Below are positions 1 to 64,000 of a DNA stretch of 64,000 nucleotides, one piece after another. Origin of the DNA: Tridacna crocea (lineage: Eukaryota > Mollusca > Bivalvia > Cardiida > Cardiidae). The stretch lies in assembly GCA_943736015.1 (NCBI GenBank), contig OX031063.1, positions 31,244,172 through 31,308,171 on the forward strand, read 5' to 3'. Below the pieces are notes generated by a model that was not told the origin of the DNA, did no database searches, and saw only the letters and a program-made list of their open reading frames with translations. The stretch's first letter is position 1. Each line of letters opens with the position of its first letter. A program made the translations under genes and the position numbers.

Positions 1-25
1 ACAGCTGCAATATCAAGTTTGCCAC

Positions 26-102
26 TAGATAGATAGATATACAGAAAGATAGATAGGTAGATAGATATGTAGATAGAGTGATAGAAAGATAGATAGATAG
101 AA
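26..102 (+). repeat. Imperfect (GATA)n microsatellite
   Basis: Runs of gata/agat interrupted by atac, aaag, ggtag, atgt and gtg words. In units 10 and 12 this tract ends in a 22-bp tandem duplication (46195-46216 and 56225-56246). Confidence 0.95.
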
Positions 103-379
103 TTAAAAGTACAAAAAGCGAAAGAAATTGATGGGATAGTGAGACGAGAGGAAAGTTTGAAGGAAGGAAAACGAAGTCAAGGGAGACAGAAAGAGAGAAC
201 TTGACAGAATAGATAAATAGAAAATGAGACAGAAGATAGTGGAATAGCGAAAGAGACAGAAAGAAACAGAGACAGAGAGACTGTGTTAAAGGAGGCAGTG
301 AGATACAGATAGAAAGAGGGAGGAAAAGAAATAGGAAGGGATAGAGAGAGAAATATAGAGCGAGAGGAAGACAGAAAGC

Positions 380-395
380 GAGAGAGAGAGAGAGA
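380..395 (+). repeat. (GA)n microsatellite
   Basis: An uninterrupted GA run of about 7-8 dinucleotides inside the purine tract. Unit 11 has one more GA (near 51495), which shifts the reading frame of the antisense frame there. Confidence 0.92.
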
Positions 396-659
396 CAGAG
401 ATACAGCAAGAGACTGAGAGTGGAAGTCAGTGTTGAGAGAAAGATAAAATGAGGAGCAGAGAGTAAGACAAACAGTTCGAAAGGCAGTAGATAGAGAAGA
501 AGGGCCAAAGAGAGAAAAAGAGAGAAACAATAGAGATAGACAAATGGAGAGAAATGTAGAGAGACAGAAATAGCGAACCAGAGATAGAAATAGATATCGA
601 AATGAAGAAGAGATAGAGAGTGAGAGATTACAGAAATGAGGGTGATTACATTATTTTCA

Positions 660-2115
660 GATCGTTCAGACTGAGGGTTAAGATCATGAAGAAGACGTTG
701 AGGCCGAAGAGTTATCGGTGAAACACAGGGTTCATAAGTTTCGTCATCGGAAGGCACATTCAATTAAGTTAGGTTCAAATATGAAAAAAAAAACAGAATA
801 AACAAGCTAATCGAGCATTGGGTTGAAATAATAGAAGGACATTGTTTCATGGTTTGGGGGAACATCGAACTTAGAACGTATTTCACCGCCTGAGACAAAG
901 TAAAAGGAACCAAAAGAACACATTTCCGACTGGCGTTGCAGGCTAACAGGAAGGGAGTAAAATCTCTGGAAGGACACAGGCTGGTAGCTTGATCAAACAT
1001 CTCACTCACCAAGGCTGCCATCTCAATTCTTAAAATAACATAAAGCAAGCTGTTGTAGTAACCAATGGACAGAGGATACATCTTCGAACTGTGGGCATAT
1101 CAAGAAGGCAAGGGATACAGTCTAATTGAAAACGGGTAAATTTTAAGACAGAACACAGCTTTAGGGCCTTATGGTATATACGAGTGACTTAGACTGAGGG
1201 TTTTCCATTCCTTACTTTGGGTTCAACGATCTAATCTTTTAAGACTGGAAGAAAAGTTGCATTTGGGATACTCTGAAATTACTCTTACAGATTTAAAGTA
1301 CATGTCAGGAAAAGAGTGCATAGACAATCTCTGCATAAGGCACCATATGATTGAGGCAGTGGTTCAGGGCCTGGGGGCTACGTTCAACTGACTAAAGGGA
1401 CGATTTCAAAGTCTTAGAGGATACGAAATAGAATGGCGAAACATTCCACGAACCGAGGATACAATCTCAAGGACTCAATACGCTTGTTACGAATTCATGG
1501 TTGGTTTGGGGCGCTGTGAATATGAAATCGCCGACTGGGGGTACAGGCTTCGGAACTTGTGCAGTAACAGAAAGGCAGAATGACACTTTCAGGACCTATT
1601 GGCAGGCAATTTCAAGCGGTATGGAGCTCGAAACTAAAGGTGTAAACTCAAAGAAAAACAATAAATATTTCTCGGACTGAGGGTACATCTCTTCAACTAC
1701 AGGTAAATCAAACAGACTGAAAGGGGTAATGCATGGCATTTCCTTAAATTGAAATTAAAAACAAGTTTATAGACCATTTGCATTTGACAGACCGACGATA
1801 CATCTTACAGAAACACACATACAAGGGACCAAAAGGTGATTAATCATATCGAATAACTTCCAGAGGTAAGGTTTATCTCAGTGACTAAGGCTAAAGCTGA
1901 ATGAAGTAGAAAAATAAGGAACTAGTTGATTCTCAAGCGTTCGTCGACTCAGCTCATGGTATTGAGTTCATCTCACAAATTGAGGGTACATACTGGGATT
2001 GGGTTACATGAGATTAAAGACGATGGTAAGGACTAATGGGCTAGTAATACGGACTAAATGTATTTTTCCCGATATGAAAGAACAACCTGTGGACTGAGGA
2101 TACAATCAGTAAGAA
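660..2115 (+). repeat. Decayed ~20-bp minisatellite (GACTGAGGRTACATC-like motif)
   Basis: Diverged copies of one motif occur at 669, 1067, 1086, 1191, 1370, 1390, 1413, 1451, 1533, 1674, 1714, 1790, 1978, 2030, 2051 and 2091, all on the plus strand. Clear examples are ggactgagggtacatctctt (1674), ggacagaggatacatcttcg (1067), ggactgaggatacaatcag (2091), gactgggggtacaggcttcg (1533) and aattgagggtacatactgg (1978). Neighbour spacings cluster at 19-23 bases (1067/1086, 1370/1390, 1390/1413, 2030/2051), near 40 (1413/1451, 1674/1714, 2051/2091) and near 105 (1086/1191), as expected of an old tandem repeat of about 20 bases. This region is otherwise unassigned DNA. Confidence 0.7.
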
Positions 2116-2159
2116 ACAGAGATTACTTGTTTTATGGAACTGATGCGGCAAAGTATCTT

Positions 2160-2470
2160 CTCATCTCAGTGCTGATAATCCTTCAAACACAGTCAGAAAA
2201 AGAAAGCAGCAAGTGCCAAAGGGAACAATATTGTGCGAAGTACTGGTACAGCAAAGCATTGATCTCCCTCCTAATAGCTTGTATCTTTCTTTAAATTGAA
2301 TCAAAAACTCTGCCTTTCAAGCCTCTTAAAATTCACTTCTGCAAAATTCTAAATATGTGGCCATCAGAATCTAGTGTTCACACATTTTGCTTTTTCCATC
2401 ATTGTTCTTTACAAACAGTTACAATGTCTTCTTGCGCATAACAACCTTCCAGGAATAAATAATAAAGACT
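2160..2470 (+). repeat. Direct duplication, copy D1
   Basis: The core at 2205-2248 (agcagcaagtgccaaaggga through gaagtactggta) matches 2624-2667 at 41 of 44 positions by eye. Downstream both copies continue with related cctcc...agctt...ttcttt...gaat blocks and then the tail module (ctttacaaacagttacaatg... at 2408-2456). This stretch overlaps a 78-codon plus-strand frame (2058-2294) that I do not regard as a gene. Confidence 0.85.
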
Positions 2471-2505
2471 GGAAATGTATTTCCCTTTGTGAAAGTAAAA
2501 TCTGC

Positions 2506-2542
2506 GGACTAACGACAATCACTTAGACTGAAAATATGCTCT
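2506..2542 (+). repeat. Outlying pair of the ~20-bp motif
   Basis: ggactaacgacaatcactt at 2506 is followed 19 bases later by agactgaaaatatgctctg. It has the same spacing as the main cluster but lies between the two copies of the 419-bp-offset duplication. Confidence 0.5.
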
Positions 2543-2579
2543 GTAGAATTAATGACTGTTATACTGACAGGGCGCAATC

Positions 2580-2790
2580 TTATCTCAGCGCTCATTATTA
2601 TTTCGACTATGTTATATGAGAAAAGCAGCCAGTGTCAAAGGGAACAACATTGTGCGAAGTACTGGTAAATAGTTATCCTCCCTGTAAAAGCTTATATTTT
2701 CTTGAATCCGCACCTGTGCATCATTTTTCTGCACAAAATGTTAAAATTTGTTCTTGCACATAAAATCCCTTTAGAAATCAAGTAAACATG
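2580..2790 (+). repeat. Direct duplication, copy D2 (offset 419 bp)
   Basis: Second copy of the D1 block, more diverged towards its 3' end. It includes the shared motif gtgcgaagtactggta and a tail module (caaaatgttaaaatttgttcttgcacataaaatcc). A third trace, aatgtgcaaggtactggtaa, lies at about 4840-4860. Confidence 0.8.
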
Positions 2791-2821
2791 TAAAAATCAA
2801 ATTCACTTCCCTCTCTCTCTC

Positions 2822-3075
2822 AGATCGTATTGCCCAGTTGCTTGGTCGGTAAAGTACATGGCTTATAACCTATACACTCGCAGGTCCACTCCCCAAGCTG
2901 TACCAATTTCTGTCTAGTGGCTAGTGGTTTGGAAAGACTGTTACAAGAGCACTGACCGCGCCATTTACCTGACATCTAGGTAAAACACCATTAAAAACAA
3001 CATGCAAACACAGAAATCTAACTCCGCTACAACATCCAGCACTAACAACTTAATCGTCATCATCATCATCATCAT
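2822..3075 (+). repeat. SINE-like element: tRNA-like head (T1), body, (ATC)n tail
   Basis: Head: an A-box-like segment gttgcttggtcggtaaa (2838-2853) and a B-box-like segment gcaggtccactcc (2880-2892). The A-to-B spacing of about 43 bases is that of a tRNA gene. Between them cttataa (2862-2868) sits where an anticodon loop would be; its stem pairs at only two positions. The body of about 160 bases is unassigned, and the element ends in (ATC)n, a usual 3' tail for tRNA-derived SINEs. The B box is diverged and no T run of four or more follows it closely, so this copy is probably inactive. The family is not identified. Confidence 0.65.
3058..3075 (+). repeat. (CAT)n/(ATC)n microsatellite, length polymorphic between units
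   Basis: Repeat counts in units 1-12 are 6, 6, 6, 6, 8, 6, 6, 9, 9, 7, 9 and 7. This tract accounts for much of the length difference between units 1-9. Confidence 0.95.
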
Positions 3076-3600
3076 CCAAGCAATTCTTAGAAAGCTTCAC
3101 AACTGCCGTAAACTTGAACAGCTTTACTCAATACAAGTTTAGTTCACTTTTCAACACTGTTAAAAGAAATCGGAAAAAACATCTTTGTTCTACAAATCAG
3201 CTCCATTTCTGTACTCGATTTCCAACTTGGCCAAAGTATTTCAAATTGCTTATCCACAGTTTTTCCTTTTATTATCTTAAGAAGTTTTGATTCTTTCCAA
3301 AAGATCAGTAAACAACAAGTAAATAAAAACTTATTATTATAGTGCTTTTTCATGATATTGTGACAACCTTCGGGATATGATACCAGTACTTTCTCCTTTT
3401 ATAGCAAGATCTTTTAAAGGTAATGCAAACAAGACTTATAAAACATATTTCTCGCTTACCTTATCGATATCCCGTCTATTGATCGATTAACTTCAAAAGT
3501 AGACTTCGGCAACATAGTCCTTTGCTTCATCACTTCTTTACAAGATCAGATTGTGTCAAGGATTCCTAAACATGAAATATCAAAAAACACATTCTCTCTT
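3076..3600 (+). other. AT-rich stretch with no recognised feature
   Basis: About 525 bases between the ATC tail and the CTGT tract. I see no tRNA-like box, motif array or coding signal. A 69-codon minus-strand frame (3144-3353) exists in units 1, 3 and 4 (unit 2 has a shifted end). Units 5-12 have an A-to-C change at the base matching 3339 that turns its fifth codon into TAG, so it is not maintained. Confidence 0.7.
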
Positions 3601-3620
3601 TCTGTCTGTCTGTCTGTCTC
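3601..3620 (+). repeat. (CTGT)n microsatellite in a CT-rich tract
   Basis: tctgtctgtctgtctgtctc preceded by ctctctt. Units 5-8 have a T instead of C at the first ctg, a marker of the second haplotype block. CT-rich tracts also stand before the T1 (2810-2822) and T6 (4556-4577) heads, so they seem to be part of the repeated module. Confidence 0.93.
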
Positions 3621-3625
3621 TCAGC

Positions 3626-4085
3626 ATCACTGACCAAAGGTCTATAGTTCGATTTCTCGGCCAATCTTATTTTCTGTGTCAGGATTCGGGAAGGTAGAAA
3701 GGAAAGGACCCGTTAAACAAACTCAAATAAAACATAGGTAATTGCCTGTGATATAACTCAAAGTATGTTGAAGTCGTCAGATCGGGCTCATAACTTCCAT
3801 TTTCGTTAACATGACGCTCTTTAAGATCTGAACAAATAGAAAACAAAACTTCATCAGCGTAATTCTCAGCTAAGTTGCTCAGTTGATGCCATGATCGGCC
3901 TGAAACTTGGGGTTAACAGGTTCGATTTCCCAGCTGTTGCAATTTTTATCCGAGATTTGATATTATTTTCTCGTCACTCCGCATTTTCTTTCCCTTCTTT
4001 CAATTCACAACACAACTGGACATCACTTTTCTTTACAAAAATGTTACCATTTCTTCTCGCACATAACAATCCTCCAGGAATAAAA
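3626..4085 (+). repeat. tRNA-derived composite module, copy I (heads T2 and T3 plus tail)
   Basis: Starts with a B-box-like remnant T2 (tagttcgatttctc, 3646-3659; no A box seen). It continues through a block at 3773-3812 that repeats at 4203-4242 with about two differences in 40 bases, then head T3, then a tail module at 3980-4085 (ctttacaaaaatgttacc, cttctcgcacataacaat, cctccaggaataaa). The matching parts of copy II lie about 425-485 bases downstream. Part of this copy (3712-3828) is deleted in units 10-12. Confidence 0.8.
3866..3947 (+). repeat. tRNA-like head T3 with A box, B box and T5 run
   Basis: agttgctcagttgatgcc (from 3873) resembles a tRNA A box/D arm. ggttcgatttc at 3919-3929 is one base off the B-box consensus GGTTCGANTCC. 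A run of five T follows at 3943-3947. It is homologous to T5 (4292-4380), with identical gttgctcagttgatg and cctgaaact blocks. The acceptor stem is not recognisable, so it is tRNA-derived rather than a tRNA gene. Confidence 0.65.
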
Positions 4086-4520
4086 GTAGCGGCAAAGTAA
4101 TGTTTCACGATTAAAACCCAAGGTTCTATAGTTCGATAGCCCGGCTATTCTAATTTTCTTTTTCAGGATTGGTGCGTGCCATATAACTGAAATTATGTTG
4201 AAATCGTCAGATCGGGCTCATAACTTTCATTTTCGTTAACATGGCTCCCTTAAAGATATGATCGATCACAAAATCTTCATCAGCATGATTTTTTACCTTA
4301 GTTGCTCAGTTGATGACGAACGAGGCCTGAAACTAGGGGTTCTCGGGTTCGATTCCCCAGCTATTCGACTCTATTTTTTTAAGTTTTGATTACATGACAA
4401 GCGTCATTCATTATACATCGCTCACATTTTGCCCCTTAAATTCAGAAAAGAACTCCTACCTGGTTTTTTATAAAATGTAACTATGTCTACTCGTATAGAA
4501 CAATCCCCAAGGCATAAAGT
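4086..4520 (+). repeat. tRNA-derived composite module, copy II (heads T4 and T5 plus tail)
   Basis: Head T4 has a B-box-like tagttcgatagcc at 4130-4142, preceded by gcggcaaagtaatgtt, which recurs as gcggcaaagtaacgtt before T6. The cgtcagatcgggctcataac block (4205-4224), head T5 and a tail module (4421-4515: cacattttgcc... aaaatgtaactatgtctactcg... caatccccaaggcataaa) follow. The order matches copy I. Confidence 0.8.
4292..4380 (+). repeat. tRNA-like head T5: A box, consensus B box, T7 terminator-like run (unit 1)
   Basis: A-box/D-arm-like tagttgctcagttgatg at 4299-4315. B box ggttcgattcc at 4346-4356, an exact match to GGTTCGANTCC. The T arm tcggg-ttcgatt-cccca pairs at 4 of 5 positions. A run of seven T stands at 4374-4380, only 18 bases after the B box. 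The A-to-B spacing (47) is tRNA-like. These are the elements of a type 2 Pol III promoter with a terminator, predicting a transcript of about 85-90 nt. D and anticodon stems are degenerate and no acceptor stem is visible, so a functional tRNA is unlikely. Confidence 0.65.
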
Positions 4521-4584
4521 GAAAACTTCAAAATCAGCTAATTTCCTTCAATCCCGCTCTCACTCCCTCTCTCTTTAGACCGTC

Positions 4585-4660
4585 CATCATTAGCCAAGGC
4601 AGCGGCAAAGTAACGTTCCAGGCTTTAAACTGAAGGTTCTATGGTTCGAATCCCAGCATA
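4585..4660 (+). repeat. tRNA-like head T6 with consensus B box
   Basis: A-box-like tagccaaggcagcgg at 4591-4605 and B box ggttcgaatcc at 4643-4653, an exact match to GGTTCGANTCC. Spacing is 52 bases. The middle contains ctttaaa flanked by cag and ctg, a possible remnant of an anticodon arm. No T run of four or more follows until about 4689, so termination near the element is weaker than for T5. It is homologous to T4 and stands after the CT-rich tract 4556-4577, as T1 does after 2810-2822. Confidence 0.6.
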
Positions 4661-4966
4661 TCTAATTTCCATCTTTAGACCAGTTATATTTTAGTTTTAT
4701 AATTATAGGTCTCCTCTGTTTCTGGGGACTTTTACCACCCATATGCCACAGAGGCGAAGGCAGCCACCAATTTCTAAGGCCCCGAGTGGCGGGGGCCCTA
4801 TTAAATTTTCATCGCTCACAGATTTTTTTGTTTTGGAATAATGTGCAAGGTACTGGTAAGTGAAATTCCAACACAGCATGGATGGTGCACATATAACTGA
4901 TATGACTGAAATAATACACTTTCAACTCTGTATGAATCCGCTACAAAAAATTACACTCAAAATTAC
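4661..4966 (+). other. Unassigned stretch with a GC-rich hairpin
   Basis: About 300 bases without a coding signal. The only clear structure is the hairpin at 4778-4797. A trace of the D1/D2 block (aatgtgcaaggtactggtaa) lies at about 4840-4860, beside a T-rich run (4826-4836). Confidence 0.6.
4778..4797. other. GC-rich inverted repeat (6-bp stem, 8-nt loop)
   Basis: GGCCCC (4778-4783) pairs with GGGGCC (4792-4797) around gagtggcg. It stands out in AT-rich surroundings, and the stem is unchanged in every unit where I read it. Whether it marks the end of an old mobile element or has a role is not known. Confidence 0.6.
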
Positions 4967-5025
4967 GGACTGGGGGAGCATCATATCAAGTAAGAAATGA
5001 TCATACAGACTGAGGAAAATATGAG
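4967..5025 (+). repeat. Outlying pair of the ~20-bp motif near the unit end
   Basis: ggactgggggagcatcat at 4967 and agactgaggaaaatatgag at 5007, 40 bases apart. Because units are joined head to tail, these copies sit just before the purine tract of the next unit, so the tract appears to be embedded in the old minisatellite. Confidence 0.6.
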
Positions 5026-5118
5026 AAAGGAAGCAAATTACTTTTTTAAAAGGAAAAGTATGGGCATCATGGTAAGAGAATACAGTCTTTCAAACGTAAG
5101 ACACACAACAAGGATACC

Positions 5119-38889: not shown

Positions 38890-38920
<31 letters not shown>

Positions 38921-43900: not shown

Positions 43901-44016
43901 TTACAAGAGCACTGACCGCGCCATTTACCTGACATCTAGGTAAAACACCATTAAAAACAACATGCAAACACAGAAATCTAACTCCGCTACAACATCCAGC
44001 ACTAACAACTTAATCG

Positions 44017-44047
<31 letters not shown>

Positions 44048-46086: not shown

Positions 46087-46194
46087 ACAGCTGCAATATC
46101 AAGTTTGCCACTAGATAGATAGATATACAGAAAGATAGATAGGTAGATAGATATGTAGATAGAGTGATAGAAAGATAGATAGATAGAATTAAAA

Positions 46195-46216
46195 AGAGAG
46201 ATAGATAGAATTAAAA
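46195..46216 (+). repeat. 22-bp tandem duplication, unit 10
   Basis: agagagatagatagaattaaaa repeats the preceding gatagatagaattaaaa segment. One T-to-G change distinguishes it from the unit 12 copy. It shifts the antisense frame across the tract. Confidence 0.93.
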
Positions 46217-49200: not shown

Positions 49201-49820
49201 AAAGCTTCACAACTGCCGTAAACTTGAACAGCTTTACTCAATACAAGTTTAGTTCACTTTTCAACACTGTTAAAAGAAATCGGAAAAAACATATTTGTTC
49301 TACAAATCAGCTCCATTTCTGTACTCGATTTCCAACTTGGCCAAAGTATTTCAAATTGCTTATCCACAGTTTTTCCTTTTATTATCTTAAGAAGTTTTGA
49401 TTCTTTCCAAAAGATCAGTAAACAACAAGTAAATAAAAACTTATTATTCTAGTGCTTTTTCATGATATTGTGACAACCTTCGGGATATGATACCAGTACT
49501 TTCTCCTTTTATAGCAAGATCTTTTAAAGGTAATGCAAACAAGACTTATAAAACATATTTCTCGCTTACCTTATCGATATCCCGTCTATTGATCGATTAA
49601 CTTCAAAAGTAGACTTCGGCAACATAGTCCTTTGCTTCATCACTTCTTTACAAGATCAGATTGTGTCAAGGATTCCTAAACATGAAATATCAAAAAACAC
49701 ATTCTCTCTTTCTGTCTGTCTGTCTGTCTCTCAGCATCACTGACCAAAGGTCTATAGTTCGATTTCTCGGCCAATCTTATTTTCTGTGTCAGGATTCGGG
49801 AAGGTAGAAAGGAAAGGACC

Positions 49821-49822
49821 CT
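49821..49822 (+). other. 117-bp deletion junction, unit 10
   Basis: ggaccc joins directly to tgaacaaatag. Relative to unit 1, bases 3712-3828 are missing, with only a 1-base overlap at the junction. The same junction is found in units 11 and 12. Confidence 0.95.
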
Positions 49823-50284
49823 GAACAAATAGAAAACAAAACTTCATCAGCGTAATTCTCAGCTAAGTTGCTCAGTTGATGCCATGATCGGCCTGAAACT
49901 TGGGGTTAACAGGTTCGATTTCCCAGCTGTTGCAATTTTTATCCGAGATTTGATATTATTTTCTCGTCACTCCGCATTTTCTTTCCCTTCTTTCAATTCA
50001 CAACACAACTGGACATCACTTTTCTTTACAAAAATGTTACCATTTCTTCTCGCACATAACAACCCTCCAGGAATAAAAGTAGCGGCAAAGTAATGTTTCA
50101 CGATTAAAACCCAAGGTTCTATAGTTCGATAGCCCGGCTATTCTAATTTTCTTTTTCAGGATTGGTGCGTGCCATATAACTGAAATTATGTTGAAATCGT
50201 CAGATCGGGCTCATAACTTTCATTTTCGTTAACATGGCTCCCTTAAAGATATGATCGATCACAAAATCTTCATCAGCATGATTT

Positions 50285-50372
50285 TTTACCTTAGTTGCTC
50301 AGTTGATGACGAACGAGGCCTGAAACTAGGGGTTCTCGGGTTCGATTCCCCAGCTATTCGACTCTATTTTTT
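50285..50372 (+). repeat. tRNA-like head T5, unit 10 (T6 run)
   Basis: Same boxes; 6-T run at 50367-50372. Here copy I of the module has lost 117 bases upstream of T3, while T5 is untouched. Confidence 0.65.
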
Positions 50373-53300
50373 AAGTTTTGATTACATGACAAGCGTCATT
50401 CATTATACATCGCTCACATTTTGCCCCTTAAATTCAGAAAAGAACTCCTACCTGGTTTTTTATAAAATGTAACTATGTCTACTCGTATAGAACAATCCAC
50501 AAGGCATAAAGTGAAAACTTCAAAATCAGCTAATTTCCTTCAATCTCGCTCTCACTCCCTCTCTCTTTAGACCGTCCATCATTAGCCAAGGCAGCGGCAA
50601 AGTAACGTTCCAGGCTTTAAACTGAAGGTTCTATGGTTCGAATCCCAGCATATCTAATTTCCATCTTTAGACCAGTTATATTTTAGTTTTATAATTATAG
50701 GTCTCCTCTGTTTCTGGGGACTTTTACCACCCATATGCCACAGAGGCGAAGGCAGCCACCAATTTCTAAGGCCCCGAGTGGCGGGGGCCCTATTAAATTT
50801 TCATCGCTCACAGATTTTTTTGTTTTGGAATAATGTGCAAGGTACTGGTAAGTGAAATTCCAACACAGCATGGATGGTGCACATATAACTGATATGACTG
50901 AAATAATACACTTTCAACTCTGTATGAATCCGCTACAAAAAAATTACACTCAAAATTACGGACTGGGGGAGCATCATATCAAGTAAGAAATGATCATACA
51001 GACTGAGGAAAATATGAGAAAGGAAGCAAATTACTTTTTTAAAAGGAAAAGTATGGGCATCATGGTAAGAGAATACAGTCTTTCAAACGTAAGACACACA
51101 ACAAGGATACCACAGCTGCAATATCAAGTTTGCCACTAGATAGATAGATATACAGAAAGATAGATAGGTAGATAGATATGTAGATAGAGTGATAGAAAGA
51201 TAGATAGATAGAATTAAAAGTACAAAAAGCGAAAGAAATTGATGGGATAGTGAGACGAGAGGAAAGTTTGAAGGAAGGAAAACGAAGTCAAGGGAGACAG
51301 AAAGAGAGAACTTGACAGAATAGATAAATAGAAAATGAGACAGAAGATAGTGGAATAGCGAAAGAGACAGAAAGAAACAGAGACAGAGAGACTGTGTTAA
51401 AGGAGGCAGTGAGATACAGATAGAAAGAGGGAGGAAAAGAAATAGGAAGGGATAGAGAGAGAAATATAGAGCGAGAGGAAGACAGAAAGCGAGAGAGAGA
51501 GAGAGAGACAGAGATACAGCAAGAGACTGAGAGTGGAAGTCAGTGTTGAGAGAAAGATAAAATGAGGAGCAGAGAGTAAGACAAACAGTTCGAAAGGCAG
51601 TAGACAGAGAAGAAGGGCCAAAGAGAGAAAAAGAGAGAAACAATAGAGATAGACAAATGGAGAGAAATGTAGAGAGACAGAAATAGCGAAACCAGAGATA
51701 GAAATAGATATCGAAATGAAGAAGAGATAGAGAGTGAGAGATTACAGAAATGAGGGTGATTACATTATTTTCAGATCGTTCAGACTGAGGGTTAAGATCA
51801 TGAAGAAGACGTTGAGGCCGAAGAGTTATCGGTGAAACACAGGGTTCATAAGTTTCGTCATCGGAAGGCACATTCAATTAAGTTAGGTTCAAATATGAAA
51901 AAAACAGAATAAACAAGCTAATCGAGCATTGGGTTGAAATAATAGAAGGACATTGTTTCATGGTTTGGGGGAACATCGAACTTAGAACGTATTTCACCGC
52001 CTGAGACAAAGTAAAAGGAACCAAAAGAACACATTTCCGACTGGCGTTGCAGGCTAACAGGAAGGGAGTAAAATCTCTGGAAGGACACAGGCTTGTAGCT
52101 TGATCAAACATCTCACTCACCAAGGCTGCCATCTCAATTCTTAAAATAACATAAAGCAAGCTGTTGTAGTAACCAATGGACAGAGGATACATCTTCGAAC
52201 TGTGGGCATATCAAGAAGGCAAGGGATACAGTCTAATTGAAAACGGGTAAATTTTAAGACAGAACACAGCTTTAGGGCCTTATGGTATATACGAGTGACT
52301 TAGACTGAGGGTTTTCCATTCCTTACTTTGGGTTCAACGATCTAATCTTTTAAGACTGGAAGAAAAGTTGCATTTGGGATACTCTGAAATTACTCTTACA
52401 GATTTAAAGTACATGTCAGGAAAAGAGTGCATAGACAATCTCTGCATAAGGCACCATATGATTGAGGCAGTGGTTCAGGGCCTGGGGGCTACGTTCAACT
52501 GACTAAAGGGACGATTTCAAAGTCTTAGAGGATACGAAATAGAATGGCGAAACATTCCACGAACCGAGGATACAATCTCAAGGACTCAATACGCTTGTTA
52601 CGAATTCATGGTTGGTTTGGGGGCGCTGTGAATATGAAATCGCCGACTGGGGGTACAGGCTTCGGAACTTGTGCAGTAACAGAAAGGTAGAATGACACTT
52701 TCAGGACCTATTGGCAGGCAATTTCAAGCGGTATGGAGCTCGAAACTAAAGGTGTAAACTCAAAGAAAAACAATAAATATTTCTCGGACTGAGGGTACAT
52801 CTCTTCAACTACAGGTAAATCAAACAGACTGAAAGGGGTAATGCATGGCATTTCCTTAAATTGAAATTAAAAACAAGTTTATAGACCATTTGCATTTGAC
52901 AGACCGACGATACATCTTACAGAAACACACACATACAAGGGACCAAAAGGTGATTAATCATATCGAATAACTTCCAGAGGTAAGGTTTATCTCAGTGACT
53001 AAGGCTAAAGCTGAATGAAGTAGAAAAATAAGGAACTAGTTGATTCTCAAGCGTTCGTCGACTCAGCTCATGGTATTGAGTTCATCTCACAAATTGAGGG
53101 TACATACTGGGATTGGGTTAAATGAGATTAAAGACGATGGTAAGGACTAATGGGCTAGTAATACGGACTAAATGTATTTTTCCCGATATGAAAGAACAAC
53201 CTGTGGACTGAGGATACAATCAGTAAGAAACAGAGATTACTTGTTTTATGGAACTGATGCGGCAAAGTATCTTCTCATCTCAGTGCTGATAATCCTTCAA

Positions 53301-54164
53301 ACACAGTCAGAAAAAGAAAGCAGCAAGTGCCAAAGGGAACAATATTGTGCGAAGTACTGGTACAGCAAAGCATTGATCTCCCTCCTAATAGCTTGTATCT
53401 TTCTTTAAATTGAATCAAAAACTCTGCCTTTCAAGCCTCTTAAAATTCACTTCTGCAAAATTCTAAATATGTGGCCATCAGAATCTAGTGTTCACACATT
53501 TTGCTTTTTCCATCATTGTTCTTTACAAACAGTTACAATGTCTTCTTGCGCATAACAACCTTCCAGGAATAAATAAATACAGACTGGAAATGTATTTCCC
53601 TTTGTGAAAGTAAAATCTGCGGACTAACGACAATCACTTAGACTGAAAATATGCTCTGTAGAATTAATGACTGTTATACTGACAGGGAGCAATCTTATAT
53701 CAGCGCTCATTATTATTTCGACTATGTTATATGAGAAAAGCAGCCAGTGTCAAAGGGAACAACATTGTGCGAAGTACTGGTAAATAGTTATCCTCCCTGT
53801 AAAAGCTTATATTTTCTTGAATCCGCACCTGTGCATCATTTTTCTGCACAAAATGTTAAAATTTGTTCTTGCACATAAAATCCCTTTAGAAATCAAGTAA
53901 ACATGTAAAAATCAAATTCACTTCCCTCTCTCTCTCAGATCGTATTGCCCAGTTGCTTGGTCGGTAAAGTACATGGCTTATAACCTATACACTCGCAGGT
54001 CCACTCCCCAAGCTGTACCAATTTCTGTCTAGTGGTTTGGAAAGACTGTTACAAGAGCACTGACCGCGCCATTTACCTGACATCTAGGTAAAACACCATT
54101 AAAAACAACATGCAAACACAGAAATCTAACTCCGCTACAACATCCAGCACTACCAACTTAATCG

Positions 54165-54195
<31 letters not shown>

Positions 54196-54827
54196 AGCAA
54201 TTCTTAGAAAGCTTCACAACTGCCGTAAACTTGAACAGCTTTACTCAATACAAGTTTAGTTCACTTTTCAACACTGTTAAAAGAAATCGGAAAAAACATA
54301 TTTGTTCTACAAATCAGCTCCATTTCTGTACTCGATTTCCAACTTGGCCAAAGTATTTCAAATTGCTTATCCACAGTTTTTCCTTTTATTATCTTAAGAA
54401 GTTTTGATTCTTTCCAAAAGATCAGTAAACAACAAGTAAATAAAAACTTATTATTCTAGTGCTTTTTCATGATATTGTGACAACCTTCGGGATATGATAC
54501 CAGTACTTTCTCCTTTTATAGCAAGATCTTTTAAAGGTAATGCAAACAAGACTTATAAAACATATTTCTCGCTTACCTTATCGATATCCCGTCTATTGAT
54601 CGATTAACTTCAAAAGTAGACTTCGGCAACATAGTCCTTTGCTTCATCACTTCTTTACAAGATCAGATTGTGTCAAGGATTCCTAAACATGAAATATCAA
54701 AAAACACATTCTCTCTTTCTGTCTGTCTGTCTGTCTCTCAGCATCACTGACCAAAGGTCTATAGTTCGATTTCTCGGCCAATCTTATTTTCTGTGTCAGG
54801 ATTCGGGAAGGTAGAAAGGAAAGGACC

Positions 54828-54829
54828 CT
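54828..54829 (+). other. 117-bp deletion junction, unit 11
   Basis: Same ggaccc/tgaac junction as unit 10, so it descends from one event. Confidence 0.95.
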
Positions 54830-55291
54830 GAACAAATAGAAAACAAAACTTCATCAGCGTAATTCTCAGCTAAGTTGCTCAGTTGATGCCATGATCGGCC
54901 TGAAACTTGGGGTTAACAGGTTCGATTTCCCAGCTGTTGCAATTTTTATCCGAGATTTGATATTATTTTCTCGTCACTCCGCATTTTCTTTCCCTTCTTT
55001 CAATTCACAACACAACTGGACATCACTTTTCTTTACAAAAATGTTACCATTTCTTCTCGCACATAACAACCCTCCAGGAATAAAAGTAGCGGCAAAGTAA
55101 TGTTTCACGATTAAAACCCAAGGTTCTATAGTTCGATAGCCCGGCTATTCTAATTTTCTTTTTCAGGATTGGTGCGTGCCATATAACTGAAATTATGTTG
55201 AAATCGTCAGATCGGGCTCATAACTTTCATTTTCGTTAACATGGCTCCCTTAAAGATATGATCGATCACAAAATCTTCATCAGCATGATTT

Positions 55292-55379
55292 TTTACCTTA
55301 GTTGCTCAGTTGATGACGAACGAGGCCTGAAACTAGGGGTTCTCGGGTTCGATTCCCCAGCTATTCGACTCTATTTTTT
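55292..55379 (+). repeat. tRNA-like head T5, unit 11 (T6 run)
   Basis: Same boxes; 6-T run at 55374-55379. Confidence 0.65.
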
Positions 55380-56224
55380 AAGTTTTGATTACATGACAAG
55401 CGTCATTCATTATACATCGCTCACATTTTGCCCCTTAAATTCAGAAAAGAACTCCTACCTGGTTTTTTATGAAATGTAACTATGTCTACTCGTATAGAAC
55501 AATCCACAAGGCATAAATGAAAACTTCAAAATCAGCTAATTTCCTTCAATCCCGCTCTCACTCCCTCTCTCTTTAGACCGTCCATCATTAGCCAAGGCAG
55601 CGGCAAAGTAACGTTCCAGGCTTTAAACTGAAGGTTCTATGGTTCGAATCCCAGCATATCTAATTTCCATCTTTAGACCAGTTATATTTTAGTTTTATAA
55701 TTATAGGTCTCCTCTGTTTCTGGGGACTTTTACCACCCATATGCCACAGAGGCGAAGGGAGCCACCAATTTCTAAGGCCCCGAGTGGCGGGGGCCCTATT
55801 AAATTTTCATCGCTCACAGATTTTTTTGTTTTGGAATAATGTGCAAGGTACTGGTAAGTGAAATTCCAACACAGCATGGATGGTGCACATATAACTGATA
55901 TGACTGAAATAATACACTTTCAACTCTGTATGAATCCGCTACAAAAAATTACACTCAAAATTACGGACTCGGGGAGCATCATATCAAGTAAGAAATGATC
56001 ATACAGACTGAGGAAAATATGAGAAAGGAAGCAAATTACTTTTTTAAAAGGAAAAGTATGGGCATCATGGTAAGAGAATACAGTCTTTCAAACGTAAGAC
56101 ACACAACAAGGATACCACAGCTGCAATATCAAGTTTGCCACTAGATAGATAGATATACAGAAAGATAGATAGGTAGATAGATATGTAGATAGAGTGATAG
56201 AAAGATAGATAGATAGAATTAAAA

Positions 56225-56246
56225 AGATAGATAGATAGAATTAAAA
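56225..56246 (+). repeat. 22-bp tandem duplication, unit 12
   Basis: A perfect tandem copy of the preceding 22 bases, so it is probably closer to the original duplication than the unit 10 version. Confidence 0.93.
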
Positions 56247-59200
56247 GTACAAAAAGCGAAAGAAATTGATGGGATAGTGAGACGAGAGGAAAGTTTGAAG
56301 GAAGGAAAACGAAGTCAAGGGAGACAGAAAGAGAGAACTTGACAGAATAGATAAATAGAAAATGAGACAGAAGATAGTGGAATAGCGAAAGAGACAGAAA
56401 GAAACAGAGACAGAGAGACTGTGTTAAAGGAGGCAGTGAGATACAGATAGAAAGAGGGAGGAAAAGAAATAGGAAGGGATAGAGAGAGAAATATAGAGCG
56501 AGAGGAAGACAGAAAGCGAGAGAGAGAGAGAGACAGAGATACAGCAAGAGACTGAGAGTGGAAGTCAGTGTTGAGAGAAAGATAAAATGAGGAGCAGAGA
56601 GTAAGACAAACAGTTCGAACGGCAGTAGACAGAGAAGAAGGGCCAAAGAGAGAAAAAGAGAGAAACAATAGAGATAGACAAATGGAGAGAAATGTAGAGA
56701 GACAGAAATAGCGAAACCAGAGATAGAAATAGATATCAAAATGAAGAAGAGATAGAGAGTGAGAGATTACAGAAATGAGGGTGATTACATTATTTTCAGA
56801 TCGTTCAGACTGAGGGTTAAGATCATGAAGAAGACGTTGAGGCCGAAGAGTTATCGGTGAAACACAGGGTTCATAAGTTTCGTCATCGGAAGGCACATTC
56901 AATTAAGTTAGGTTCAAATATGAAAAAAACAGAATAAACAAGCTAATCGAGCATTGGGTTGAAATAATAGAAGGACATTGTTTCATGGTTTGGGGGAACA
57001 TCGAACTTAGAACGTATTTCACCGCCTGAGACAAAGTAAAAGGAACCAAAAGAACACATTTCCGACTGGCGTTGCAGGCTAACAGGAAGGGAGTAAAATC
57101 TCTGGAAGGACACAGGCTTGTAGCTTGATCAAACATCTCACTCACCAAGGCTGCCATCTCAATTCTTAAAATAACATAAAGCAAGCTGTTGTAGTAACCA
57201 ATGGACAGAGGATACATCTTCGAACTGTGGGCATATCAAGAAGGCAAGCGATACAGTCTAATTGAAAACGGGTAAATTTTAAGACAGAACACAGCTTTAG
57301 GGCCTTATGGTATATACGAGTGACTTAGACTGAGGGTTTTCCATTCCTTACTTTGGGTTCAACGATCTAATCTTTTAAGACTGGAAGAAAAGTTGCATTT
57401 GGGATACTCTGAAATTACTCTTACAGATTTAAAGTACATGTCAGGAAAAGAGTGCATAGACAATCTCTGCATAAGGCACCATATGATTGAGGCAGTGGTT
57501 CAGGGCCTGGGGGCTACGTTCAACTGACTAAAGGGACGATTTCAAAGTCTTAGAGGATACGAAATAGAATGGCGAAACATTCCACGAACCGAGGATACAA
57601 TCTCAAGGACTCAATACGCTTGTTACGAATTCATGGTTGGTTTGGGGCGCTGTGAATATGAAATCGCCGACTGGGGGTACAGGCTTCGGAACTTGTGCAG
57701 TAACAGAAAGGTAGAATGACACTTTCAGGACCTATTGGCAGGCAATTTCAAGCGGTATGGAGCTCGAAACTAAAGGTGTAAACTCAAAGAAAAACAATAA
57801 ATATTTCTCGGACTGAGGGTACATCTCTTCAACTACAGGTAAATCAAACAGACTGAAAGGGGTAATGCATGGCATTTCCTTAAATTGAAATTAAAAACAA
57901 GTTTATAGACCATTTGCATTTGACAGACCGACGATACATCTTACAGAAACACACATACAAGGGACCAAAAGGTGATTATTAATATCGAATAACTTCCAGA
58001 GGTAAGGTTTATCTCAGTGACTAAGGCTAAAGCTGAATGAAGTAGAAAAATAAGGAACTAGTTGATTCTCAAGCGTTCGTCGACTCAGCTCATGGTATTG
58101 AGTTCATCTCACAAATTGAGGGTACATACTGGGATTGGGTTAAATGAGATTAAAGACGATGGTAAGGACTAATGGGCTAGTAATACGGACTAAATGTATT
58201 TTTCCCGATATGAAAGAACAACCTGTGGACTGACGATACAATCAGTAAGAAACAGAGATTACTTGTTTTATGGAACTGATGCGGCAAAGTATCTTCTCAT
58301 CTCAGTGCTGATAATCCTTCAAACACAGTCAGAAAAAGAAAGCAGCAAGTGCCAAAGGGAACAATATTGTGCGAAGTACTGGTACAGCAAAGCATTGATC
58401 TCCCTCCTAATAGCTTGTATCTTTCTTTAAATTGAATCAAAAACTCTGCCTTTCAAGCCTCTTAAAATTCACTTCTGCAAAATTCTAAATATGTGGCCAT
58501 CAGAATCTAGTGTTCACACATTTTGCTTTTTCCATCATTGTTCTTTACAAACAGTTACAATGTCTTCTTGCGCATAACAACCTTCCAGGAATAAATAAAT
58601 ACAGACTGGAAATGTATTTCCCTTTGTGAAAGTAAAATCTGCGGACTAACGACAATCACTTAGACTGAAAATATGCTCTGTAGAATTAATGACTGTTATA
58701 CTGACAGGGCGCAATCTTATCTCAGCGCTCATTATTATTTCGACTATGTTATATGAGAAAAGCAGCCAGTGTCAAAGGGAACAACATTGTGCGAAGTACT
58801 GGTAAATAGTTATCCTCCCTGTAAAAGCTTATATTTTCTTGAATCCGCACCTCTGCATCATTTTTCTGCACAAAATGTTAAAATTTGTTCTTGCACATAA
58901 AATCCCTTTAGAAATCAAGTAAACATGTAAAAATCAAATTCACTTCCCTCTCTCTCTCAGATCGTATTGCCCAGTTGCTTGGTCGGTAAAGTACATGGCT
59001 TATAACCTATACACTCGCAGGTCCACTCCCCAAGCTGTACCAATTTCTGTCTAGTGGCTAGTGGTTTGGAAAGACTGTTACAAGAGCACTGACCGCGCCA
59101 TTTACCTGACATCTAGGTAAAACACCATTAAAAACAACATGCAAACACAGAAATCTAACTCCGCTACAACATCCAGCACTACCAACTTAATCGTCATCAT

Positions 59201-59850
59201 CATCATCATCATCATCCAAGCAATTCTTAGAAAGCTTCACAACTGCCGTAAACTTGAACAGCTTTACTCAATACAAGTTTAGTTCACTTTTCAACACTGT
59301 TAAAAGAAATCGGAAAAAACATATTTGTTCTACAAATCAGCTCCATTTCTGTACTCGATTTCCAACTTGGCCAAAGTATTTCAAATTGCTTATCCACAGT
59401 TTTTCCTTTTATTATCTTAAGAAGTTTTGATTCTTTCCAAAAGATCAGTAAACAACAAGTAAATAAAAACTTATTATTCTAGTGCTTTTTCATGATATTG
59501 TGACAACCTTCGGGATATGATACCAGTACTTTCTCCTTTTATAGCAAGATCTTTTAAAGGTAATGCAAACAAGACTTATAAAACATATTTCTCGCTTACC
59601 TTATCGATATCCCGTCTATTGATCGATTAACTTCAAAAGTAGACTTCGGCAACATAGTCCTTTGCTTCATCACTTCTTTACAAGATCAGATTGTGTCAAG
59701 GATTCCTAAACATGAAATATCAAAAAACACATTCTCTCTTTCTGTCTGTCTGTCTGTCTCTCAGCATCACTGACCAAAGGTCTATAGTTCGATTTCTCGG
59801 CCAATCTTATTTTCTGTGTCAGGATTCGGGAAGGTAGAAAGGAAAGGACC

Positions 59851-59852
59851 CT
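59851..59852 (+). other. 117-bp deletion junction, unit 12
   Basis: Same ggaccc/tgaac junction as units 10 and 11. Confidence 0.95.
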
Positions 59853-60311
59853 GAACAAATAGAAAACAAAACTTCATCAGCGTAATTCTCAGCTAAGTTG
59901 CTCAGTTGATGCCATGATCGGCCTGAAACTTGGGGTTAACAGGTTCGATTTCCCAGCTGTTGCAATTTTTATCCGAGATTTGATATTATTTTCTCGTCAC
60001 TCCGCATTTTCTTTCCCTTCTTTCAATTCACAACACAACTGGACATCACTTTTCTTTACAAAAATGTTACCATTTCTTCTCGCACATAACCCTCCAGGAA
60101 TAAAAGTAGCGGCAAAGTAATGTTTCACGATTAAAACCCAAGGTTCTATAGTTCGATAGCCCGGCTATTCTAATTTTCTTTTTCAGGATTGGTGCGTGCC
60201 ATATAACTGAAATTATGTTGAAATCGTCAGATCGGGCTCATAACTTTCATTTTCGTTAACATGGCTCCCTTAAAGATATGATCGATCACAAAATCTTCAT
60301 CAGCATGATTT

Positions 60312-60399
60312 TTTACCTTAGTTGCTCAGTTGATGACGAACGAGGCCTGAAACTAGGGGTTCTCGGGTTCGATTCCCCAGCTATTCGACTCTATTTTTT
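60312..60399 (+). repeat. tRNA-like head T5, unit 12 (T6 run)
   Basis: Same boxes; 6-T run at 60394-60399. Confidence 0.65.
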
Positions 60400-61138
60400 A
60401 AGTTTTGATTACATGACAAGCGTCATTCATTATACATCGCTCACATTTTGCCCCTTAAATTCAGAAAAGAACTCCTACCTGGTTTTTTATAAAATGTAAC
60501 TATGTCTACTCGTATAGAACAATCCACAAGGCATAAAGTGAAAACTTCAAAATCAGCTAATTTCCTTCAATCTCGCTCTCACTCCCTCTCTCTTTAGACC
60601 GTCCATCATTAGCCAAGGCAGCGGCAAAGTAACGTTCCAGGCTTTAAACTGAAGGTTCTATGGTTCGAATCCCAGCATATCTAATTTCCATCTTTAGACC
60701 AGTTATATTTTAGTTTTATAATTATAGGTCTCCTCTGTTTCTGGGGACTTTTACCACCCATATGCCACAGAGGCGAAGGCAGCCACCAATTTCTAAGGCC
60801 CCGAGTGGCGGGGGCCCTATTAAATTTTCATCGCTCACAGATTTTTTTGTTTTGGAATAATGTGCAAGGTACTGGTAAGTGAAATTCCAACACAGCATGG
60901 ATGGTGCACATATAACTGATATGACTGAAATAATACACTTTCAACTCTGTATGAATCCGCTACAAAAAAATTACACTCAAAATTACGGACTGGGGGAGCA
61001 TCATATCAAGTAAGAAATGATCATACAGACTGAGGAAAATATGAGAAAGGAAGCAAATTACTTTTTTAAAAGGAAAAGTATGGGCATCATGGTAAGAGAA
61101 TACAGTCTTTCAAACGTAAGACACACAACAAGGATACC

Positions 61139-64000
61139 ACAGCTGCAATATCAAGTTTGCCACTAGATAGATAGATATACAGAAAGATAGATAGGTAGAT
61201 AGATATGTAGATAGAGTGATAGAAAGATAGATAGATAGAATTAAAAGTACAAAAAGCGAAAGAAATTGATGGGATAGTGAGACGAGAGGAAAGTTTGAAG
61301 GAAGGAAAACGAAGTCAAGGGAGACAGAAAGAGAGAACTTGACAGAATAGATAAATAGAAAATGAGACAGAAGATAGTGGAATAGCGAAAGAGACAGAAA
61401 GAAACAGAGACAGAGAGACTGTGTTAAAGGAGGCAGTGAGATACAGATAGAAAGAGGGAGGAAAAGAAATAGGAAGGGATAGAGAGAGAAATATAGAGCG
61501 AGAGGAAGACAGAAAGCGAGAGAGAGAGAGAGACAGAGATACAGCAAGAGACTGAGAGTGGAAGTCAGTGTTGAGAGAAAGATAAAATGAGGAGCAGAGA
61601 GTAAGACAAACAGTTCGAAAGGCAGTAGATAGAGAAGAAGGGCCAAAGAGAGAAAAAGAGAGAAACAATAGAGATAGACAAATGGAGAGAAATGTAGAGA
61701 GACAGAAATAGCGAACCAGAGATAGAAATAGATATCGAAATGAAGAAGAGATAGAGAGTGAGAGATTACAGAAATGAGGGTGATTACATTATTTTCAGAT
61801 CGTTCAGACTGAGGGTTAAGATCATGAAGAAGACGTTGAGGCCGAAGAGTTATCGGTGAAACACAGGGTTCATAAGTTTCGTCATCGGAAGGCACATTCA
61901 ATTAAGTTAGGTTCAAATATGAAAAAAAAAACAGAATAAACAAGCTAATCGAGCATTGGGTTGAAATAATAGAAGGACATTGTTTCATGGTTTGGGGGAA
62001 CATCGAACTTAGAACGTATTTCACCGCCTGAGACAAAGTAAAAGGAACCAAAAGAACACATTTCCGACTGGCGTTGCAGGCTAACAGGAAGGGAGTAAAA
62101 TCTCTGGAAGGACACAGGCTTGTAGCTTGATCAAACATCTCACTCACCAAGGCTGCCATCTCAATTCTTAAAATAACATAAAGCAAGCTGTTGTAGTAAC
62201 CAATGGACAGAGGATACATCTTCGAACTGTGGGCATATCAAGAAGGCAAGCGATACAGTCTAATTGAAAACGGGTAAATTTTAAGACAGAACACAGCTTT
62301 AGGGCCTTATGGTATATACGAGTGACTTAGACTGAGGGTTTTCCATTCCTTACTTTGGGTTCAACGATCTAATCTTTTAAGACTGGAATAAAAGTTGCAT
62401 TTGGGATACTCTGAAATTACTCTTACAGATTTAAAGTACATGTCAGGAAAAGAGTGCATAGACAATCTCTGCATAAGGCACCATATGATTGAGGCAGTGG
62501 TTCAGGGCCTGGGGGCTACGTTCAACTGACTAAAGGGACGATTTCAAAGTCTTAGAGGATACGAAATAGAATGGCGAAACATTCCACGAACCGAGGATAC
62601 AATCTCAAGGACTCAATACGCTTGTTACGAATTCATGGTTGGTTTGGGGCGCTGTGAATATGAAATCGCCGACTGGGGGTACAGGCTTCGGAACTTGTGC
62701 AGTAACAGAAAGGCAGAATGACACTTTCAGGACCTATTGGCAGGCAATTTCAAGCGGTATGGAGCTCGAAACTAAAGGTGTAAACTCAAAGAAAAACAAT
62801 AAATATTTCTCGGACTGAGGGTACATCTCTTCAACTACAGGTAAATCAAACAGACTGAAAGGGGTAATGCATGGCATTTCCTTAAATTGAAATTAAAAAC
62901 AAGTTTATAGACCATTTGCATTTGACAGACCGACGATACATCTTACAGAAACACACATACAAGGGACCAAAAGGTGATTAATCATATCGAATAACTTCCA
63001 GAGGTAAGGTTTATCTCAGTGACTAAGGCTAAAGCTGAATGAAGTAGAAAAATAAGGAACTAGTTGATTCTCAAGCGTTCGTCGACTCAGCTCATGGTAT
63101 TGAGTTCATCTCACAAATTGAGGGTACATACTGGGATTGGGTTACATGGGATTAAAGACGATGGTAAGGACTAATGGGCTAGTAATACGGACTAAATGTA
63201 TTTTTCCCGATATGAAAGAACAACCTGTGGACTGAGGATACAATCAGTAAGAAACAGAGATTACTTGTTTTATGGAACTGATGCGGCAAAGTATCTTCTC
63301 ATCTCAGTGCTGATAATCCTTCAAACACAGTCAGAAAAAGAAAGCAGCAAGTGCCAAAGGGAACAATATTGTGCGAAGTACTGGTACAGCAAAGCATTGA
63401 TCTCCCTCCTAATAGCTTGTATCTTTCTTTAAATTGAATCAAAAACTCTGCCTTTCAAGCCTCTTAAAATTCACTTCTGCAAAATTCTAAATATGTGGCC
63501 ATCAGAATCTAGTGTTCACACATTTTGCTTTTTCCATCATTGTTCTTTACAAACAGTTACAATGTCTTCTTGCGCATAACAACCTTCCAGGAATAAATAA
63601 TAAAGACTGGAAATGTATTTCCCTTTGTGAAAGTAAAATCTGCGGACTAACGACAATCACTTAGACTGAAAATATGCTCTGTAGAATTAATGACTGTTAT
63701 ACTGACAGGGCGCAATCTTATCTCAGCGCTCATTATTATTTCGACTATGTTATATGAGAAAAGCAGCCAGTGTCAAAGGGAACAACATTGTGCGAAGTAC
63801 TGGTAAATAGTTATCCTCCCTGTAAAAGCTTATATTTTCTTGAATCCGCACCTCTGCATCATTTTTCTGCACAAAATGTTAAAATTTGTTCTTGCACATA
63901 AAATCCCTTTAGAAATCAAGTAAACATGTAAAAATCAAATTCACTTCCCTCTCTCTCTCAGATCGTATTGCCCAGTTGCTTGGTCGGTAAAGTACATGGC
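61139..64000 (+). repeat. Array unit 13, partial (first 2862 bp), cut by window edge
   Basis: Reverts to the long form: 10-A run near 61922, no 22-bp duplication, gcgaaccag without the extra A. It shares aagcgatacag and gttacatgggatta with unit 9. Private change ggaataaaagttgc near 62388. The window ends before the site of the 117-bp deletion. Confidence 0.97.

What the first reader, a model, noticed from the sequence alone, without database searches (positions are those of the whole stretch)
1..64000. Very long composite satellite filling the whole window
A 5.12-kb unit repeated more than twelve times without interruption and without a gene is long for a satellite. It is comparable in scale to known macrosatellites such as human D4Z4 and DXZ4, though unrelated in sequence as far as I can see. 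The unit is built from older repeats (GATA/GA tracts, a decayed minisatellite, tRNA-derived modules), so it is a repeat made of repeats.
Basis: partly seen in the sequence, partly recalled or inferred. Interest (0 to 1): 0.7.

Follow-up and report, generated by a model that had tools for sequence, protein, structure and literature searches.

The report
Half-megabase macrosatellite from old repeats
The window is one slice of a roughly half-million-base tandem array in the middle of one animal chromosome (probably a clam relative's), in which a 5.1-kb apparently non-coding block made of older repeats is copied about a hundred times; it is a large new example of a known kind of repeat rather than a new kind of thing.

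Summary
In detail: 12 complete units of about 5.1 kb plus a partial one fill the window head to tail, at least 99.5% identical by substitutions, with no gene found. The window lies in a 60.8-Mb chromosome (C8) of a 1.05-Gb genome, probably a bivalve's. The array spans about 512 kb at mid-chromosome. One unit probe has 101 matches genome-wide; the 100 listed are on C8. By published usage this is a macrosatellite. The unit is a repeat made of repeats: a GATA/GA tract, a decayed minisatellite, four tRNA-like A/B-box modules, and the last ~125 bp of a dispersed element. A diverged relative of part of the unit lies on C2. Likeness falls with distance, a 20,178-bp block of four units is duplicated with four differences, and edge units are more diverged: signs of unequal exchange. 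Two 200-N gaps bracket a 127.6-kb stretch in reverse orientation, so the apparent inversion is probably a scaffolding artefact and the copy number probably a minimum. No function is shown; a role as this chromosome's centromere is possible and untested. New member of a known kind.

The parts
1..64000 (+). Slice of the macrosatellite array: units start at 1, 5119, 10238, 15356, 20474, 25598, 30716, 35834, 40961, 46087, 51112, 56117, 61139
   Evidence: anchor positions and alignment of 13 units
1..5118 (+). Unit 1, reference unit (5118 bp)
1..640 (+). Purine-rich GATA/GA microsatellite-derived tract (79% purine); TRF period-4 TAGA at 26-101
641..2150 (+). Decayed minisatellite: 10 matches to GACTGAGGGTACA with <=3 mismatches (200 shuffles: mean 0.33, max 3), irregularly spaced
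   Evidence: the motif was chosen from this sequence
2203..2248 (+). Short module repeated at 2622-2667 (93.5%)
2838..2894 (+). tRNA-like A/B-box module 1 (degenerate)
3711..3827 (+). 117-bp block present in units 1-9 and absent in units 10-12 (unit-1 coordinates worked out from the alignment columns, so good to about 10 bp)
3743..3938 (+). Module repeated at 4173-4365 (80%)
3867..3930 (+). tRNA-like A/B-box module 2
4302..4357 (+). tRNA-like A/B-box module 3 (B box GGTTCGATTCCC, no mismatch to the consensus used)
4591..4654 (+). tRNA-like A/B-box module 4 (B box GGTTCGAATCCC, no mismatch to the consensus used)
4674..4798 (+). Last ~125 bp of a dispersed element that ends GGCCCCGAGTGGCGGGGGCC; a 33-base probe in it has 512 matches genome-wide at <=3 mismatches, the array's own copies included
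40961..61138 (+). Four-unit higher-order block of 20,178 bp; the next 20,178 bp (from 61139 to beyond the window) are a copy with 4 substitutions

Best explanation
It is a single-locus, apparently non-coding macrosatellite. Shown: about 101 assembled copies of a unit of mostly 5.0-5.3 kb over about 512 kb in the middle of C8; the unit is a mosaic of older repeats; copies are 99.5-100% alike in the window region; likeness falls with distance; a four-unit block is duplicated; edge units are more diverged. Inferred: a stretch that had already collected a GATA/GA tract, a minisatellite, tRNA-derived SINE-like pieces and the end of a mobile element was duplicated in tandem, then grew and was kept uniform by unequal exchange between sister chromatids or homologues, plus gene conversion. 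I find no product encoded by it; the default reading is that it is packaged as heterochromatin and kept by recombination rather than by selection on its sequence. The reverse-oriented 127.6-kb stretch is most likely a repeat-only contig placed the wrong way round between two scaffold gaps.
For: Unit spacing and identity (19 full units, 99.54-100%, mean 99.74%). One locus: exact 24-mer 72 of 72 on C8; second probe 101 matches, 100 listed, all on C8 31,055,049-31,564,329. Distance effect: Mantel r 0.52, p 0.0001. Block duplication of 20,178 bp with 4 substitutions; a run of six unit spacings recurs 19 units away (spacings only). Edges: left remnants 82-85%, first unit of the + stretch about 95-96%, right-edge unit 97.6%. 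Mosaic origin: box pairs, dispersed element end, diverged relative on C2 holding several of the modules, not strictly in the unit's order. Runs of exactly 200 N on both sides of the reverse stretch, + orientation on both outer sides.
Against: No reads were available, so copy number and the near-identical blocks rest on the assembly, and only part of the + stretch was read base by base. The reverse stretch is a distinct subfamily (units about 5.27 and 5.14 kb, mostly 97-98% to the window unit), and its end units are no closer to one neighbour than to the other. The first unit of the + stretch has 25 private differences in about 1.6 kb, as a true array edge would, so the reverse stretch may belong elsewhere. 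One probe match of 101 is unlisted. Heterochromatin and lack of function are inferred.
Confidence: 0.85

Rival explanations
1. The array is the functional centromere, or the pericentromeric heterochromatin, of chromosome 8: a chromosome-specific centromeric macrosatellite.
For: It lies at 51-52% of the chromosome length, is about 0.5 Mb and homogeneous, and holds two assembly gaps. [quoted passage not shown]
Against: No CenH3 data, no karyotype for this species, arm ratio unknown. No CENP-B-box-like motif at <=1 mismatch in a simple scan of one unit (motif recalled). I could not see whether other chromosomes carry arrays at their middles.
Confidence: 0.18
2. A functional non-coding array: pol III/TFIIIC-binding boundary or transcribed RNA (DXZ4- or tRNA-array-like).
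For: Four A/B-box pairs per unit, all on the + strand at <=7 mismatches, so some 400 in the assembled array by multiplication; each of the four B boxes is unchanged in 20 of 20 matches in the 104-kb stretch. A human 7.3-kb tRNA tandem repeat (9-43 copies) is proposed as a boundary element (PMC4041453, title and abstract start in the search listing).
Against: No tRNA model matches. At looser limits the reverse strand and the shuffles score too (<=10 mismatches: unit 10 forward, 7 reverse; segment 7 against shuffle mean 3.2). B-box constancy is expected from homogenisation: 0 of 43 variable positions in 286 bp of modules, about 2.4 expected by proportion, is not significant. Some B boxes are changed in edge units. 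No CTCF-like core found.
Confidence: 0.07
3. Assembly artefact: a short array inflated by the assembler.
For: Two 200-N gaps, a reversed stretch, near-identical 20-kb blocks.
Against: Units carry distinct, spatially ordered variants and length classes. Probe copies run at mostly regular spacing up to the right border, which I read directly. Unresolved arrays are more often collapsed than inflated (general knowledge).
Confidence: 0.04
4. A true inverted pair: two arms of the same array facing each other around 31.182 Mb.
For: The assembly shows 25 reverse copies left of the second gap and 75 listed forward copies right of it.
Against: The turning points coincide with 200-N gaps, and the piece beyond the other gap is again + orientation; the reversed piece is repeat in every sample, so proximity data can hardly orient it.
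Confidence: 0.15

Closest known systems
Human macrosatellites RS447 (4.7 kb x 20-103), D4Z4 (3.3 kb x 1 to >100), ZAV on chr 9 (5.3 kb), PMC3018141 passages
   Same: Several-kb unit in tandem, up to about 100 copies, at one or two loci; within-array identity above 99% is given there for the TAF11-Like array (99.3-99.7%); ZAV monomers also contain microsatellite, LTR and LINE pieces
   Different: Sequence relation not tested; this unit is AT-rich and no ORF scanned matches a known family, whereas RS447 and D4Z4 carry an ORF and ZAV is 60% GC
DXZ4 (3-kb units, X-linked), PMC3218863 passages
   Same: Single-locus macrosatellite that is not obviously protein coding
   Different: DXZ4 is 62% GC and binds CTCF; this unit is about 38% GC with no CTCF-like core in a simple scan
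Pacific oyster satellitome, PMC8268682 passages
   Same: Bivalve satellites, some tied to mobile elements, some with monomers above 2 kb
   Different: There monomers are 21-3287 bp and the longest array among those inspected is about 40 kb, with a gap; here 5.1 kb and about 512 kb
Human tRNA tandem repeat 1q23.3 (PMC4041453, title and abstract start only)
   Same: Kilobase unit with tRNA-related sequence in tandem
   Different: That unit is GC-rich and binds CTCF; here only decayed box motifs

Membership tests
Macrosatellite | Repeat unit of several kb in tandem, same orientation | tested here: met
   12 full units + partial in window, 19 full units in 104 kb; the 127.6-kb reverse stretch lies between gaps
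Macrosatellite | Specific to one or two chromosomes | tested here: met
   72 of 72 exact anchors on C8; second probe 101 matches, the 100 listed all on C8; a related 1.1-kb mosaic, 68-86% by piece, on C2
Macrosatellite | High identity between copies | tested here: met
   99.54-100%, mean 99.74%, substitutions only, among 19 units
Macrosatellite | Copy number varies between individuals | not testable with these tools
   one assembly only
D4Z4/RS447-type (coding) macrosatellite | ORF of a known protein in each unit | tested here: not met
   10 of 14 listed ORFs >=50 aa scanned against Pfam, none at cut-off (best E 0.031); the 4 left out are three low-complexity GA-strand frames and one short frame overlapping a scanned one; spliced genes not tested
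DXZ4-type macrosatellite | GC-rich, CTCF-binding unit | tested here: not met
   GC 32-41% per segment, CpG o/e 0.64, no CTCF-like core at <=2 mismatches of a recalled consensus; binding itself not testable
Centromeric satellite | CenH3 association / primary constriction | not testable with these tools
   no ChIP, FISH or karyotype; position 51-52% of C8 only
tRNA-derived SINE | Internal pol III A and B boxes at tRNA spacing | tested here: met
   consensus recalled; 5 hits (4 places) at <=7 total mismatches, 0 on the reverse strand, 100 shuffles mean 0.03, max 1; less clear at <=10
tRNA-derived SINE | tRNA-like head recognised by a tRNA model | tested here: not met
   ARAGORN 0; no tRNA among Rfam matches at E<=1 on 1-5300 or E<=10 on 2800-4720; relaxed ARAGORN gives weak calls on both strands
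rRNA/snRNA/5S tandem gene cluster | A structural RNA gene in the unit | tested here: not met
   no Rfam match at E<=1 on 1-5300

The most novel reading that the evidence does not exclude
The array is the chromosome-8 centromere of this animal: a centromere built on a single-chromosome, 5.1-kb composite macrosatellite that was assembled from SINE-like pieces, a minisatellite and the end of a mobile element, so that each chromosome may have its own unrelated centromeric array.
Probability: 0.18. Interest if true: 0.6.

Novelty: new member of a known kind. Interest (0 to 1): 0.33.

Why it matters
A half-megabase, single-locus macrosatellite in a (probable) bivalve would be over ten times the longest array given for the satellites inspected in the Pacific oyster (about 40 kb, PMC8268682 passages). 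Its parts can still be traced, with a diverged relative of part of the unit on chromosome 2 and degenerate remnants at its edge, so it is a good case for studying how composite macrosatellites start and spread. It also warns that inversions in chromosome-scale assemblies can be repeat-only contigs placed between gaps. If the locus proves to be the centromere, it gives a sequence handle on a mollusc centromere.

Tried and rejected
Rejected: gene cluster (no Rfam match at E<=1, no Pfam match at cut-off in the 10 ORFs scanned). Whole unit as one dispersed transposon: in the 6 dispersed loci with shared upstream sequence, only unit 4674-4798 or 4688-4798 matches. Simple palindrome reading: both turning points are 200-N gaps.

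Led nowhere: a whole-unit DNA search of the own genome was not scored. Comparing the end units of the reversed stretch with the start of the + stretch gave no preference: 40-42 substitutions for its end units, 37-40 for units of the + stretch itself. Relaxed ARAGORN gave only weak calls on both strands. Open frames of two dispersed copies were printed but not scanned. Paper searches: mollusc macrosatellite, 2 papers hold the terms, neither on this as far as title or passages show; gastropod satellite, 0; mitochondrial size, 0; chromosome lengths, 4 unrelated papers. Two assemblies of similar size with 18 chromosomes were compared through passages: Tridacna derasa has other chromosome lengths (81.02, 77.16, 75.31 Mb ...) and a 24.95-kb mitochondrion; Lumbricus terrestris has 361 scaffolds, the longest 98.9 Mb. 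Whether the C2 relative is itself an array stayed open: 5 of 105 matches, all reverse strand, are unlisted, and the search meant to place them did not complete.
Full report
Observation. The window holds 12 complete units and a 2862-bp partial unit, head to tail, beginning at 1, 5119, 10238, 15356, 20474, 25598, 30716, 35834, 40961, 46087, 51112, 56117 and 61139, with no N. Unit lengths are 5118, 5119, 5118, 5118, 5124, 5118, 5118, 5127, 5126, 5025, 5005 and 5022 bp. Full units differ by 0-22 substitutions and 0-12 indel events. Units 10-12 lack a 117-bp block, at about 3711-3827 in unit-1 coordinates.

Where it is. The window is C8:31,244,172-31,308,171 of a 1,048,827,098-base genome in 31 contigs. 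C8 is 60,784,671 bases long. C1 to C18 are 77.2 to 40.2 Mb, C19 and C20 under 60 kb, and so are the five of C21-C31 that I looked at. C31, 29,009 bases, carries a mitochondrial COX1 whose frame has three TGA codons. I read that COX1 as bivalve from memory of such proteins; no call names the organism. Two published 18-chromosome assemblies of similar size do not fit (passages).

Extent. An exact 24-mer has 72 forward matches and no reverse match in the genome, all on C8. A 32-base probe from another part of the unit, with up to 3 mismatches, has 76 forward and 25 reverse matches; the 100 listed are all on C8, from 31,055,049 to 31,564,329, and one forward match is unlisted. Samples and border fetches give this order. 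First, a left flank with diverged + orientation remnants at 31,052,549-31,054,197 (82-85%). Then a 200-N run, a 127,573-bp stretch in reverse orientation, and a second 200-N run (31,181,972-31,182,171). Last, the + stretch with the window, ending at 31,566,074. I take the 200-N runs to be scaffold gaps (inference). An eight-copy 156-bp satellite begins about 150 bp after the array's end. From the first gap on, the array is 511,676 bases long, at 51-52% of the chromosome. The + stretch was read directly over 104 kb, at both ends and in short samples; elsewhere it is known by probe spacing, which is 5.0-5.2 kb except for one of 7.55 kb that holds a 2.4-kb partial unit.

Orientation. The reversed stretch is array in every sample taken (12 short loci plus parts of L049 and L061) and has 25 probe copies at 5.1-5.3-kb spacing. 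It lies between gaps, while both outer pieces are + orientation. I infer a contig placed the wrong way round. Against certainty: its end units are no closer to one neighbour than to the other, and the first unit of the + stretch has 25 private differences in about 1.6 kb, as a true array edge would, so the reversed stretch may also belong elsewhere. It is its own subfamily, with units of about 5.27 kb (the end unit holds a 135-bp duplication) and 5.14 kb. Since contigs end inside the array, the copy number is probably a minimum.

How it grew. Among 19 full units of a contiguous 104-kb stretch, identity is 99.54-100%, mean 99.74% (substitutions only). Difference rises with distance (Mantel r 0.52, p 0.0001, 9,999 permutations). 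The block 31,285,132-31,305,309 (window 40961-61138) is followed by a copy of the same 20,178 bp with 4 substitutions. A run of six spacings recurs 19 units away. Edge units are more diverged. These are the marks of unequal exchange and conversion, as established for tandem arrays; the process itself is inferred.

What the unit is made of. Bases 1-640 are 79% purine, GATA/GA-derived. Bases 641-2150 hold 10 matches to GACTGAGGGTACA (<=3 mismatches) against a mean of 0.33 and a maximum of 3 in 200 shuffles; the motif was chosen after seeing the sequence, so this overstates the surprise. The 3' half holds internal repeats, 3743-3938 with 4173-4365 at 80% and others, and four tRNA-like A/B-box pairs, all on the + strand, at <=7 mismatches to a recalled consensus, against a shuffle mean of 0.03 (max 1 of 100); at <=10 mismatches the reverse strand has 7 hits and the contrast is weak. 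No tRNA model matches, so 'tRNA-derived' rests on box motifs. Of 7 loci fetched, picked from the list, 6 share 0.5-1.3 kb among themselves up to that end, and the seventh has the short end five times in one orientation.

A relative on chromosome 2. Two probes also hit C2 near 58.514 Mb at 3 mismatches. A 1.5-kb fetch shows pieces related to unit 2701-2791, 4196-4525, 4622-4678, 3715-3960 and 4828-4912, in that order (so not strictly the unit's), within about 1.1 kb at 78-86%, without the 4674-4798 element end. A sample about 5 kb to one side matches 2575-2669 at 75%; a sample about 5.5 kb to the other side does not match the unit. So part of the mosaic exists outside the array and probably predates its amplification. 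Whether C2 holds a small array is open.

Function. No Pfam match at cut-off in the 10 of 14 ORFs scanned, no structural RNA, no CTCF-like or CENP-B-box-like motif in simple scans of one unit. Each B box is identical in 20 of 20 matches of the 104-kb stretch, but some are altered in edge units. The 43 variable positions miss the four modules where about 2.4 would be expected, which is not significant. I see no evidence of selection on the sequence. The mid-chromosome place, and the oyster precedent of CenH3-associated sequences found at the centromeres of one or two chromosome pairs only (PMC7348941, passages), keep a centromere role open.

Comparison. Macrosatellites are described as several-kb units that tend to be specific to one or two chromosomes: RS447 4.7 kb x 20-103, D4Z4 3.3 kb, DXZ4 3 kb x 50-100, ZAV 5.3 kb (PMC3018141, passages). 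[quoted passage not shown] The array fits. It differs from DXZ4 and D4Z4 in composition or lack of a known ORF. In the Pacific oyster the longest monomer is 3287 bp and the longest array among those inspected about 40 kb (PMC8268682, passages). I found no paper on this array in searches; the library is open-licence only, three of these lists were capped, and the species is unknown to me.

Verdict. A new member of a known kind.

Noticed in passing
C8:31,054,199-31,054,398 and 31,181,972-31,182,171 (outside the window): Two 200-N runs bracket a 127.6-kb repeat stretch that reads in reverse; likely a misplaced or misoriented contig in the assembly.
   Followed up: partly
L050:5226-6487 (right border of the array): A 156-bp satellite, 8.1 copies, 94% matches, starts about 150 bp after the array ends; by eye, similar sequence also lies in L071, about 5.5 kb from the chromosome-2 relative of the unit.
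   Followed up: partly
L063-L067, L069 (C2, C6, C13, C8, C17, C18): A dispersed element with a hairpin-like end GGCCCCGAGTGGCGGGGGCC; pairs of copies are 78-99% identical over 0.5-1.3 kb. Class not determined.
   Followed up: partly
L068 (C8:17,677,500-17,679,900): The ~90-bp end of that dispersed element occurs five times in one orientation within 2.2 kb, perhaps the start of another satellite.
   Followed up: no
C31 (29,009 bp), locus L062: Mitochondrial genome, large for an animal; its COX1 frame is 607 aa long, with what look like long extensions at both ends.
   Followed up: no
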